Below, in pieces: positions 17,811 to 34,829 of a stretch of DNA of 64,000 nt. Origin of the DNA: Dysidea avara (lineage: Eukaryota; Porifera; Demospongiae; Dictyoceratida; Dysideidae). The position numbers and the translations under genes are program-made. Numbering within the stretch: the stretch's first letter is position 1; each line of letters starts with the position of its first letter. Below the pieces are notes generated by a model. The model saw only the letters and a program-made list of their open reading frames with translations, was not told where the DNA came from and did no database searches. The stretch lies in the NCBI RefSeq assembly GCF_963678975.1, contig NC_089279.1, positions 26,212,004 to 26,276,003 on the forward strand, in the 5' to 3' direction.

Positions 17811-19912
17811 GTGCTGTCTTGGTGTTGTACGCACCAATTATAAGAGAAATATTAAATATATTTCAAATAAAAGAGAAATATTAATAGTAGTAGTTAATGT
17901 AGTAGTAGTAGTGTCTTCTTGTCTCTAGTAGTCTCTCATGGTCTCTGATGGTCTCTCATAGTCTCTGATGGTCTCTCATAGTCTCTGATGGTCTCTCATA
18001 GTCTCTGATAGTCTCTCATGGTCTCTGATAGTCTCTGATAGTCTCTGATAGTCTCTGATGGTCTCTCATAGTCTCTGATGGTCTCTCATAGTCTCTCATA
18101 GTCTCTGATGGTCTCTCATAGTCTCTGATGGTCTCTCATAGTCTCTGATGGTCTCTCATAGTCTCTCATAGTCTCTGATGGTCTCTCATAGTCTCTGATG
18201 GTCTCTGATAGTCTCTGATAGTCTCTCATAGTCTCTGATGGTCTCTCATAGTCTCTGTTGGTCTCTCATAGTCTCTGATGGTCTCTCATAGTCTCTCATA
18301 GTCTCTCATAGTCTCTGATGGTCTCTCATAGTCTCTGATGGCCTCTCATAGTCTCTCATAGTCTCTGATGGTCTCTCATAGTCTCTGATGGTCTCTCATA
18401 GTCTCTCATAGTCTCTGATGGTCTCTCATAGTCTCTCATAGTCTCTCATAGTCTCTGATGGTCTCTCATAGTCTCTGATGGTCTCTCATAGTCTCTGATG
18501 GTCTCTCATAGTCTCTCATAGTCTCTCATGGTCTCTCATGTTCTACACTGCCGACAGTACATACTTTCTAATTATCATTTTTATTACTATTTGCTATTAC
18601 ACAATGTGGAGACCTCGTGCAAGTTGTATACATAAGATTAGTAAACTGCAGAAAAAAAATTTTTTTAGCTATTCAGTGTGATAAAATTATTGACGAATGT
18701 ATACCATTTTTTGAACACATTGTCATTATGTGCATTGAATTGACAGGTTTTGCTTTTATTTTTTTCTAGCATATGACTTGATATCATCCTAATGCATAGT
18801 GTTCGTCTGAGACATCATTACTCTGTACCTACTCCCATCCAATGACGCCTGATGATGAGATTACTCAGTTGATCAACTCTAATAGCTGGCTGCATTTTCA
18901 TGTTGATATGTAGTCATAAGGGGATCGAGTGAACCGGCTGTAGCTACCTCGTACCTATAGTACCATAGTACCATAGCTGTCATCCAGTCAGTGGATCACT
19001 TCACTGAGGAGCACATCTATGCTAAGGTATCAGACTAGATGTAATGGTGTGTGTGTTTGTTTGTGTGCATGTATGTATGTGTGTGTGTGTGTGTGTGTGT
19101 GTGTGTGTGTGTGTGTGTGTGTGTGTGTGTGTGTGTGTAGTGTGTGTAGCGTGTGTAGTGTGTGTGTGTGTGTGGAACTAAGTAGTTGTCTGTCACTAGA
19201 AATTGTCACACTAACAGCAGACCCCCAGAACAATGTGGACAAAGGTATGGCACTGACTGCATTTTTTTTGGAAGTGTTGATTAATGTGTGTATAACATCA
19301 CTGAACATGAATTCCATGTCCAATGTATAGTACAATGTGGTGCTAATAATGGTCCTGTTAATATTGATGACCAATACAGGCACACAATGGTTTGGACATG
19401 TGGAAACCCTATACTTGCCTCATATTGAGTCGTCGACAAGACTAGCTGTAATCCAACGAGTGGACCAATTCACAAGAGGAACAATTCTGTGCTAATGTAT
19501 CTGACCGGATGTGGTCATGTGTGTCAACTAAAAGTCGTTCTCTCTCACTAGAAATTGTTCCACTAACTGCAGACCAGCCATCGACAGGAGTGTTTGTTAG
19601 TGTTGATTGTCATCCAACCAGTGGACCACTTTACAGGACTTATTCTTGATTGTAGTTATTCATTTGGTAACTTGACTGCTTAAAGTGATGGCAGACCCAT
19701 GGTAGCTAGCTGGTACTATACTATTCAGTCGTGTCAATTTTTTTTGATGAATCCTCGGTTATCAGTATGCTTGTCATGGATTTAGTTTCATATGTCACTT
19801 AATGATGTTGAGTTCATTTGGGCGTCCATTGTGTGTGTGCGTGCGTGCGTGCGTATGTCCAACTTTCAGTGCAATATCAAACGTGTGTATATAGAGCATG
19901 TGGATGACAATT
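17811..19912 (+). repeat. Left inverted arm of the foldback element
   Basis: About 2.1 kb. It maps in reverse complement to two right-arm pieces: 17811-18972 to 34829-34090, and 18977-19912 to about 28925-28058. The junction at 18972-18977 is tight (a CCATAG duplication) where the right arm carries about 3.9 kb extra. Inside is a (GT)n tract at 19077-19175 that is also present in the right-arm copies. Confidence 0.85.
17921..18540 (+). repeat. 10-bp minisatellite GTCTCTSATR, 62 units
   Basis: Perfectly phased decamers, mainly GTCTCTCATA and GTCTCTGATG in irregular alternation. The inverted counterpart in the right arm (34519-34678) has only 16 units, so array length differs between the arms of one element. 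Confidence 0.95.
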
Positions 19913-22014
19913 TCTGTGAAGTTGCCTTGTCCAATACATTTTACAACAATGCCTAACTCATCGTCACACACCATGTATTAACAGGAACGGAAACAGAGTT
20001 TTATTTTTTTTCCATGAACTTCTACACTATACGCAACAAGAAATTATTGAGGCTACTAAGTCTTTCTGTCATCCCTATGTCCATATGAGCATCAACATAC
20101 TATTGACTGTTGGCAAAGCATGCCTTTGGGTGTGTACCCCCTTTGTCCCTTCCTAGAAAACCCAGTGTACGTTATGTAGATATTATGTTGAAGATTTAAC
20201 AAATAATTTTTTACTTAAGTTGCCATTTAATAATATAGAATTGTTAAAATTATTATACATGTAGTTTACCTTTCCTCAATGTCGTGTAGTTCTCTTCAAT
20301 CATTTTCAATCATTATAGTGGTTAATCATGCCATAGAATCATCAAGCTGTTGCTAATAAAAAAGAAAAATTATAGTATGAAGTAACTGAATATATATAAA
20401 TGGTTAACCTGTGGATAAAAACTGAATACAATAGACATGGTATTACCCCTCTAGCTTACTGGCAACCATACCACACATTATAATCAAACCATGCCATTCA
20501 CTATACCACAAGCCTGTTGTCTGTTAATTGTGAAATTTATCACCTCCATCCTCCCTCAGTTGGCTTGCTTTAAAGCTGGGTTGCGTGGAAACATATAGTG
20601 AAGCAACAAAATTAAGTTGCGACAGGGCAAGTAATCAGTAACAGGGTAATGAGTTGATGACCAGAGCATTTCTTTGACCAGTTTGTGCAGTGACTGCGCA
20701 TTTAGGGTTAGTATACCTTTTCAAAACTCCTCTTTTTCCATAACTTTATAAATAAATTTGCCACTTGTGTTCTGTTATATTTTCACTACTGATGACCAAC
20801 ATTTTTGAGTAGCGAACAGGTTAAATTTCGGTGCCCATTCCTCCCTAACAAACTATCTAAGAAATAATACTTTAGACTTTTGGTAATAGGAGTCATCAAA
20901 AATGAAAGTTATAAGTCCATTGGTTTTCCCCTTGAATTTTCAAAGTGGGTGTTAATATAGTTGGGTTTCTATGCATCAAGTATCAAAGGGTACTCAGATA
21001 AAACACCTCCTAATGTGTTGATTTGGTCCATCAGCATTGACAATGTACAGAAATGTTCTGGTTGTAGCCTTTGATGCCCTGCACAGGGGCTAGACACAGC
21101 TCTCATCTTTCATAACTCTTGGTACAATTACAAAGTGTTCTGTTATCAAAGTATGATCCATATAGTTTATCAGGGACTAAATAGTGTCATCATACCCTGT
21201 TTTTGGTATTTTGTGTGTATGTTTTTTTTTATGTATACATCTTAATTAGACAGTTGTCACTTACTATGTTACATTTTTTTTGCTAGTCTTCAGTGCATTG
21301 TACTGCCATTGTAGGCACTGTATTTAATTTGGTTGTGCCTATAAAAAAAATTAACATGATTATGCAATCAAACAATACACTTTGCTCAGACATTTTTTTT
21401 TATGGTTTTAGTTTGCTAGTAAAGCTTAATTTTGGAACACACACAAGTATGTATTCACATAACCAGGCACATTTGTATACACGCATACCAACAAAAGCAT
21501 TTTAAAAAAGGAAGACAGTTTTTAAACACAATTTTCCCACCCAATGAACCACCACTGAAATAGCTACGTGTCCACACTACTCAGAAACTTGAGTATGATT
21601 TTGACAAAGGGTTACAAGTCGTGGGACTAAAACAAACCCCAACACCCCTAAGTGAGACATATGGCATTTCAATGATATTTGATGTTTCAGTTGATACCAC
21701 ATAAAACCCATCCTTACAGTGAATGCTGTTACCTTTGATGACACCATGATATCAGGTATATTATGCACAGGTACCCAATATGCAGCTTGATAGTAGTTCC
21801 GAGCCAATATAAAAACAGCAATATATAAGTACCAATATAAAAACAGCAATATATAATTACCCAGACCTGGCATCAGATAATTAAGCTTTTGAACATGTGG
21901 CTTTTATAGCTATCTAGTTCTCCTGTCTCTTGTGTGTACAGCGCATAGACACACACCTATTGATGCTGCCCACTGAATGTGAATCCAGTGATAGCAGGGT
22001 CCTAAGTAAGGACC
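19913..22014. other. Element interior, no gene recognised
   Basis: AT-rich sequence between the left arm and the transposase region. Some stretches, for example the plus-strand frame near 21560-21680, look mildly coding-like, but no family or splice structure was established. Confidence 0.45.
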
Positions 22015-34089: not shown

Positions 34090-34829
34090 ATGGTACTATA
34101 GGTACGAGGTAGCTACAGCTGGTTCACTCAATCCCCTTATGACTACATATCAACATGAAAATGCAGCCAGCTATTAGAGCTGATCAACTGAGTAGTCTCA
34201 TCATCAGGCGTCATTGAATGGGAGTAGCTACAGAGTAATGATGTCTCAGACGAACACTATGCATTAGGATGATATCAAGTCATATGCTAGAAAAAAATAA
34301 AAGCAAAACCTGTCAATTCAATGCACATAATGACAATGTGTTCAAAAAATGGTATACATTCGTCAACAATTTTATCACACTGAATAGCTAAAAATAATTT
34401 TTTTTCTGAAGTTTACTAATCTTATGTATACAACTTGCACGAGGTCTCCACATTGTGTAAATAGCAAATAGTAATAAAAATGATAATTAGAAAGTATGTA
34501 CTGTCGGCAGTGTAGAACATGAGAGACCATGAGAGACTATGAGAGACCATCAGAGACTATGAGAGACCATCAGAGACTATGAGAGACTATCAGAGACCAT
34601 CAGAGACTATGAGAGACCATGAGAGACCATGAGAGACTATGAGAGACTATGAGAGACCATCAGAGACTACTAGAGACAAGAAGACACTACTACTACTACA
34701 TTAACTACTACTATTAATATTTCTCTTTTATTTGAAATATATTTTCTCTTTTATTTGAAATATATTTCATATTTCTCTTATAATTGGTGCGTACAACACC
34801 AAGACAGCACCAAGACACCAAGACAGCAC
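34090..34829 (-). repeat. Right arm, outer part
   Basis: Reverse complement of 17811-18972. It includes a shorter copy of the decamer minisatellite and, near the tip, a small duplication of ATATATTTT/CTCTTTTATTTGAAAT and of CACCAAGACA that is absent from the left arm. Confidence 0.88.
34519..34678 (-). repeat. 10-bp minisatellite, right arm, 16 units
   Basis: Decamers CATGAGAGAC and CATCAGAGAC, the reverse complement of the left-arm array at 17921-18540 (62 units). Confidence 0.95.

What the first reader, a model, noticed from the sequence alone, without database searches (positions are those of the whole stretch)
17811..34829. A 17-kb foldback DNA transposon carrying a transposase and a second intact gene
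Long inverted arms, complementary tips (GTGCTGTCTTGGTG), and a near-duplicated 9-10 bp flank enclose two genes. The transposase-type gene and an unrelated multi-exon P-loop ATPase gene both appear undamaged. Few animal foldback elements are known with coding capacity, and a paired ATPase would be unusual. Boundaries and arms are read from sequence; single-element status and superfamily are inference.
Basis: partly seen in the sequence, partly recalled or inferred. Interest (0 to 1): 0.88.

Follow-up and report, generated by a model that had tools for sequence, protein, structure and literature searches.

The report
Two-gene foldback transposon in a sponge
A 17-kb piece of a marine sponge's genome looks like a real jumping DNA element that carries its own cutting enzyme and, beside it, a second gene resembling a DNA-replication motor, a pairing that recurs in other, diverged copies of the element.

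Summary
In Dysidea avara (contig C8) an element of 17.0 kb (17810-34830) has matching tips, arms with a 10/20-bp repeat array, and 8-bp flanks matching at 7 of 8 bases. It holds an open 1016-aa transposase (DDE, OTU, CXC; fold closest to IS256-family ISCth4) and, divergently, an open nine-exon gene for a primase/helicase-like P-loop ATPase. A 5.1-kb C14 copy keeps only the ATPase gene and has exact 8-bp duplications. Of 8 diverged ATPase loci examined, 4 have transposase beside them in the same divergent order and 4 do not. Both genes change slowly at protein level and rank the loci alike. So the ATPase gene is probably a long-lived second gene of this family, not a passenger. The long left arm is secondary: C6 has only tip and array there. 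Superfamily is Mutator/IS256-like by fold and duplication, not by Pfam. The ATPase's role is inferred, and a genome-wide protein tally could not be run.

The parts
17802..17809 (.). left flank duplication TGGATTTG (8 bp; 9-mer CTGGATTTG from 17801)
17810..17920 (+). left tip and subterminal unique sequence
   Evidence: 111 matches, no mismatch, with the right end apart from a 23-bp duplication
17921..18544 (+). left array of 10/20-bp repeats (GTCTCTCATAGTCTCTCATG)
   Evidence: TRF
18545..18966 (+). outer arm, unique part (secondary on the left: absent from the same end of the C6 copy)
   Evidence: 6 genomic matches, 5 abut the ATPase block or its remnant; C6 comparison
18974..19913 (+). inner left arm, inverted relative to 28054-28926
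23271..26081 (-). transposase exon 2 (DDE catalytic region, OTU, CXC)
26143..26382 (-). transposase exon 1 (start at 26382)
   Evidence: matched to P0001; GT-AG intron 26142-26082
28054..30204 (-). inner right arm with about three tandem units
30205..34089 (+). ATPase gene block; it or its remnant abuts the outer arm in 5 of 6 genomic arm matches
30330..33328 (+). ATPase gene, exons 30330-30404, 30454-30617, 30948-31405, 31471-31554, 31654-31933, 31982-32249, 32355-32558, 32614-33025, 33078-33328; 731 aa; Walker A GETETGKST
34090..34518 (-). right outer arm, unique part
34519..34677 (-). right array of 10-bp repeats
34678..34830 (-). right subterminal sequence and tip, the tip present twice (34797-34811 and 34816-34830)
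34831..34838 (.). right flank duplication TGGATTGG (7 of 8); exact 9-mer CTGGATTTG at 34841-34849

Best explanation
A two-gene DNA transposon of Mutator/IS256-like mechanism with foldback-type ends. Shown: matching tips next to 10/20-bp repeat arrays, 8-bp target duplications, an open transposase gene, and a divergently transcribed P-loop ATPase gene that is paired with the transposase in several diverged copies and changes slowly at protein level. Inferred: the transposase cuts at the tips and joins the element to a target with an 8-bp stagger; the arrays are extra binding sites; the ATPase is the element's own helper, a primase/helicase-type motor acting at the transposition complex or on the DNA that must be copied to finish the reaction. 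Copies that lost the transposase are probably moved in trans. The long left arm of this copy arose by inverted duplication of right-end sequence.
For: Second copy with both genes on C6. Flanks: exact 8 bp at C14:3058748-3063859 and at the 315-bp C9 element, 7 of 8 at C6 and in the window. Of 8 diverged ATPase loci fetched, 4 have transposase or its remnant in the same divergent order; with the window and C6 that is 6 of 6 loci that have both genes. Related tips (4 or 5 mismatches in 22) lie beyond the ATPase gene, facing it, at 6 of those 8 loci; two C1 copies become homologous within a base of that tip and stay so for at least 14.5 kb. The transposase-less C1 copy lacks nearly all of the stretch that C2 fills with transposase. 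Pairwise identities group five loci alike for both genes. dN 0.18-0.24 with dS 1.6 to saturated for ATPase, dN 0.11-0.21 with dS 0.6-2.0 for transposase, against diverged loci. Fold: ISCth4 best (E 6.8e-07), then OTUD3. D208, D275, D297, H300 in 39 of 39 and E403 in 38 of 39 aligned rows. ATPase: phrog_8841 primase/helicase 2.3e-05, in 2 of 4 aligned members at E 0.01; DUF927 8e-04, below its cut-off.
Against: 4 of the 8 diverged ATPase loci have no transposase in 20 kb, and one search scored only 40 of 1491 candidates, so the sample is partial. The C14:8.66M pair differs in age: third-base identity to the window 0.73 for transposase but 0.47 for ATPase, so the genes may have been exchanged; no tip with 6 or fewer mismatches was found in its 20 kb, and at C15:13.09M the only tip-like match (5 mismatches) points the wrong way. 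Both tips were seen only in family-1 copies; far ends of subfamily 2 were not reached. Pfam MULE matched 1 of 39 aligned members, weakly, and the ISCth4 superposition is loose (rmsd 10.1, target TM 0.58). No ATPase homologue outside D. avara was found and its model is worthless (pLDDT 33). The ATPase rows of six subfamily-2 loci each show one stop, not resolved (it may lie at an intron edge), and one recent copy (C14:1.16M) has a dN/dS of 0.61. No biochemical evidence for either protein; low dN between copies is what active transposon genes in general show.
Confidence: 0.68

Rival explanations
1. The ATPase gene is a host gene captured by the element (Pack-MULE or Pack-TIR style) and carried along since.
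For: Nine exons and a different third-base composition (GC3 0.49 against 0.31 in the transposase); capture of a gene by a Mutator-type foldback has a precedent, Ssk-FB4 (PMC8277862, passages).
Against: No unlinked parental copy recognised among the scored matches (only 40 of 1491 candidates scored); the pairing recurs at 6 loci and both genes group the five loci compared alike, so any capture is old; the composition difference persists in diverged copies (GC3 0.44-0.58 against 0.30-0.34).
Confidence: 0.13
2. Two elements that share ends: a non-autonomous ATPase element (as at C14:3.06M, 5.1 kb) and a transposase element that fused or nest, so the 17-kb unit is a composite.
For: C14:3058748-3063859 has both tips, an exact 8-bp duplication and only the ATPase gene; 4 of 8 diverged ATPase loci lack transposase in 20 kb; the two genes differ in divergence at C14:8.66M.
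Against: In the C14 copy the tip is followed within 70 bases by sequence matching the middle of an inner-arm unit of the larger element, as in a deletion derivative; subfamily-2 copies without transposase are co-linear with copies that have it.
Confidence: 0.14
3. Chance neighbours or assembly artefact: independent insertions or a misjoin put arms and genes together.
For: Repeats and microsatellites here are hard to assemble (general knowledge; reads were not available).
Against: The same junctions recur on C6 and C14 with flank duplications.
Confidence: 0.03

Closest known systems
FB4/FB-NOF foldback and Ssk-FB4 (Drosophila)
   Same: Arms of about 700 bp, 9-10 bp duplications, judged Mutator-type there; can carry an extra gene (PMC8277862, passages)
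   Different: FB4 is described there as non-autonomous with an unknown transposase; Ssk-FB4 is a recent capture of a host gene, here the ATPase gene is an old partner
Tm1 Mutator/Foldback elements (Meloidogyne)
   Same: Composite arms with short tandem repeats, mostly 9-bp duplications, putative transposase (PMC3169594, passages)
   Different: 13-15-bp repeat unit; the terms OTU, NOF and second ORF do not occur in that paper's main text
Rehavkus (Mutator-related)
   Same: 9-bp duplications, TIRs 26-400 bp, minisatellite near one TIR (PMC6446971, passages)
   Different: One ORF with PHD finger; here OTU and CXC, 8-bp duplications and a second gene
IS256 family (ISCth4)
   Same: Best structural match of the transposase; most ISCth4 copies flanked by 8-bp duplications (PMC7780238, passages)
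   Different: 1.5-kb bacterial element with one ORF
Tetris (Drosophila virilis)
   Same: Foldback with internal tandem repeats, arms up to 1735 bp, 8-10 bp duplications (PMC4079207, passages)
   Different: No apparent coding capacity; repeat unit about 220 bp

Membership tests
Mutator/MULE (IS256-related) superfamily | RNase H-like DDE catalytic fold nearest to this superfamily | tested here: met
   Model pLDDT 79.9; ISCth4 ranks 1, 2, 4 and 5, E 6.8e-07 to 1.2e-04, with a loose superposition (rmsd 7.7-10.1)
Mutator/MULE (IS256-related) superfamily | Curated sequence-family match (Pfam MULE PF10551) | tested here: not met
   No match for the window protein; 1 of 39 aligned members, weak; 1 of 9 relatives at E 0.025
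Mutator/MULE (IS256-related) superfamily | Target duplication of 8-11 bp (range recalled; 9-11 and 8-10 bp in passages seen) | tested here: met
   8 bp: exact in 2 of the 4 family copies with both tips read, 7 of 8 in the other 2
Mutator/MULE (IS256-related) superfamily | C/D-x2-H motif between second D and E (recalled, from no call) | tested here: met
   D297-L-F-H300; D and H in 39 of 39 rows
Foldback elements (structural class) | Long inverted arms built of short tandem repeats | tested here: met
Rehavkus | PHD finger in the transposase | tested here: not met
   No PHD among the families matched
Pack-MULE / Pack-TIR | Internal sequence has a parental copy outside transposon ends | tested here: inconclusive
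   None recognised among scored matches, but only 40 of 1491 candidates were scored
SF3 / DUF927-type primase-helicase (ATPase gene) | Match above a curated cut-off | tested here: not met
   DUF927 19.5 bits against cut-off 22.6; phrog_8841 2.3e-05, no curated cut-off in that library
SF3 / DUF927-type primase-helicase (ATPase gene) | Walker A, acidic Walker B and motif-C-like asparagine (SF3 motifs recalled, from no call) | tested here: met
   GETETGKST, FALDDP, IPLLCCNF, read by eye; G268 K269 S270 T271, D313 and N353 invariant in 4 of 4 rows

The most novel reading that the evidence does not exclude
The ATPase is a replication motor that lets an animal Mutator/IS256-type element move by a replicative, copy-out route: an animal DDE transposon with its own helicase-like partner, analogous in role to MuB or TnsC, or to the replication step of IS256.
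Probability: 0.15. Interest if true: 0.9.

Novelty: new variant of a known kind. Interest (0 to 1): 0.72.

Why it matters
In the passages I saw, sequence captured by Mutator-type elements is mostly fragments or recent duplicates. A transposase that stays paired with the same multi-exon ATPase gene, over divergence that nearly saturates silent sites, points to a functional two-part machine in an animal DDE-transposon lineage. It also offers a coding foldback family, with full, deleted and 315-bp forms in one genome, in which to study how foldback arms grow and whether such elements copy themselves.

Tried and rejected
Early reading that the ATPase block was a nested insertion into the right arm: dropped after searches showed the same block, or its remnant, next to the arm on C6, C14 and C15. 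Early reading that the two genes lie on different chromosomes in the annotated genome (from contig lengths): dropped, since the C6 copy has both; the annotated P0001 may be that copy (its contig is 40,518,090 bases, C6 is 40,516,720). A 9-bp duplication, first noted from the window alone, gave way to 8 bp.

Led nowhere: viral contigs with the tip, the transposase alignment and the ATPase alignment; Rfam at gathering threshold; NCBIfam; PDB sequence search with the ATPase; single-sequence model of the ATPase; terminal repeats with duplications around the diverged loci (one weak candidate at C15:12.42M, four inside the 31-bp arrays at C15:13.09M, none at the other six). The tip pair C8:6645413/6651054 belongs to another repeat, with no flank duplication seen. 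Of 32 exact tip matches I read 23; 6 of those (L002, L005, L006, L007 and the C8:6.65M pair) run into unrelated sequence, and 9 were not read. Genome contigs and metagenome contigs were not searched.
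Full report
WHERE IT IS. The transposase ORF is 99% identical over 62% of its length to an NCBI 'uncharacterized protein [Dysidea avara]', and the ATPase gene matches another one, P0065, that lies on a contig of 37,586,944 bases. The window lies in a 550.8-Mb assembly of 108 contigs at C8:26212004-26276003, and C8 is 37,586,944 bases long.

ANATOMY. Tips GGTGCTGTCTTGGTGTTGTACGCACCAATTATAAGAG face each other at 17810 and 34811, and the start of the right tip is repeated once further out, ending at 34830. Inside each tip is an array of 10/20-bp repeats, long on the left and short on the right. 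The unique part of the outer arm differs at 8 of 427 aligned bases. The left arm runs on into an inner part (18974-19913). Its inverted partners at 28054-30204 form about three tandem units. Between these and the right outer arm sits a 3.9-kb block with the ATPase gene. The flanks are TGGATTTG and TGGATTGG, with an exact 9-mer slightly further out that occurs only twice in the window.

GENES. The transposase has two exons and 1016 aa. 39 aligned proteins (the window's and 38 relatives) share D208, D275, D297 and H300; E403 is in 38. An OTU domain matches 17 of 39 at E 0.01; the window protein's own Pfam match is below the cut-off (15 bits against 23.3), but OTUD3 is the best match by PDB profile and, after ISCth4, by fold. 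An MSL2-type CXC region matches 5 of 39. The predicted structure (pLDDT 79.9) matches ISCth4 best, loosely. ISCth4 belongs to the IS256 family, whose transposases are described as similar to those of MULEs, and most of its copies have 8-bp duplications (PMC7780238, passages). The second gene has nine exons with GT-AG introns and 731 aa. It agrees with P0065 except at two splice junctions, has a Walker A motif, and resembles primase/helicase proteins weakly. No protein outside D. avara was found at E 0.001 for the whole protein (8000 best candidates scored) or at E 10 for residues 165-420 (1614 candidates); these searches need shared five-residue words.

OTHER COPIES. The 14-base tip has 32 exact matches in the genome and none for the reversed control; 6 of the 23 that I read run into unrelated sequence. 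The outer arm has 6 matches; 5 abut the ATPase block or its remnant, and the sixth is the window's own left arm. The block is complete at three places: C8, C6 and C14:3.06M. The C6 copy, 16233295-16247252, has both genes; its transposase has two stops, and its other end has tip and array but no match to the outer unique part. The C14 copy, 3058748-3063859, has the ATPase gene alone and an exact duplication ATTTTCTG; a transposase fragment lies just outside it. A 315-bp C9 element has both tips and an exact duplication CAAAATAT. C6 flanks are GATAACCC and AATAACCC.

DIVERGED PAIRS. One search gave eight loci with diverged ATPase sequence (a lower bound: 40 of 1491 candidates scored). In 20 kb around each, transposase or its remnant lies beside it at 4 of 8 (C14:8.66M, C2:23.47M, C15:12.42M, C15:13.09M), always divergently, and is absent at 4 of 8. 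The absent cases belong to the same subfamily as C2 and C15:12.42M; in the C1:51.30M comparison with C2 the transposase stretch is what is skipped. A related tip, GGTG[G/C]TGTCTTC[A/G]TGTTGCACACACGAATT, lies beyond the ATPase gene and faces it at 6 of 8 (4 or 5 mismatches in 22). As background, at up to 7 mismatches the same scan also gave scattered matches, and at C15:13.09M one with 5 mismatches that points the wrong way. Tandem-repeat scans of four of the regions showed the 10/20-bp array at two (C2, C15:12.42M). C1:51302533 and C1:52546314 mark the start of 14.5 kb of 98.8% identity, at the tip.

SELECTION AND HISTORY. Window against C14:8.66M: ATPase dN 0.184, dS about 2.4; transposase dN 0.109, dS 0.62. 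Window against C2: ATPase dN 0.230, dS saturated; transposase dN 0.209, dS 2.0. Recent copies: ATPase ratios 0.29 (C6), 0.33 (C14:3.06M) and 0.61 (C14:1.16M); transposase 0.19 (C6). Positions were kept only where local identity was at least 35%, which lowers dN and raises identities; the ATPase rows of six subfamily-2 loci each show one stop that I did not resolve. Pairwise identities of five loci group alike for both genes: window with C6, C14:8.66M nearest to these, C2 with C15:12.42M apart; no tree was built. Against strict co-inheritance, the C14:8.66M ATPase is clearly more diverged than its transposase (third-base identity 0.47 against 0.73).

MECHANISM. Shown: ends, duplications, both genes, co-occurrence, low protein change. 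Inferred: transposition by the DDE enzyme; arrays as binding sites; the ATPase as helper. Copy-out/paste-in transposition, the route assigned to IS256, passes through an intermediate that DNA replication completes (PMC7780238, passages), so a replication-type motor is a natural partner; this is an idea, not a result.

KNOWN OR NEW. Foldback ends, Mutator-type transposases and gene capture are known (PMC8277862, PMC3169594, PMC6446971, PMC4079207, passages; [quoted passage not shown] A search for papers joining SF3 helicase or DUF927 with Mutator-like transposons, at least 4 of 6 terms, gave one paper, of which I saw only the listing; a search with Mutator-like, OTU, foldback, sponge and related terms gave 8 listed papers, none of which is, by title, about such an element in a sponge. 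These are narrow searches of an open-access library. I file it as a new variant of a known kind.

Noticed in passing
window 11613-14897 and 58497-60293; C2:23482457-23484000; C15:13085056-13086080 and 13099382-13100060: A 31-bp satellite (CCTGTAGAGAGTTCAGCTACAAAGAAATCAC) occurs as long arrays in several places; at C15:13.09M two inverted arrays about 13-15 kb apart enclose the transposase-ATPase remnant, which may be a second foldback type.
   Followed up: partly
window 15324-15648: Near-perfect palindrome, two 156-bp arms with 98% complementarity and 13 bases between them, outside the element.
   Followed up: no
window 26382 leftwards (transposase N-terminus): The transposase and its relative P0002 begin with a hydrophobic stretch that looks like a signal peptide by eye, which is odd for a nuclear enzyme.
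   Followed up: no
window 30831-30942: Intron 2 of the ATPase gene holds a short repeat with at least 24 matches of about 90-110 bp elsewhere in the genome.
   Followed up: no
C1:51309363-51311242: ORFs that by eye look like an unrelated DDE transposase lie inside the subfamily-2 copy, probably a nested element.
   Followed up: no
C9:5129519-5129833: A 315-bp almost fully palindromic element with the same tips and an exact 8-bp duplication.
   Followed up: yes
window 22260-22523: An uninterrupted (CA)132 microsatellite inside the element.
   Followed up: no
window 46246-49770 (-): A single 1174-aa ORF that by eye looks like a NACHT/leucine-rich-repeat immune receptor.
   Followed up: no
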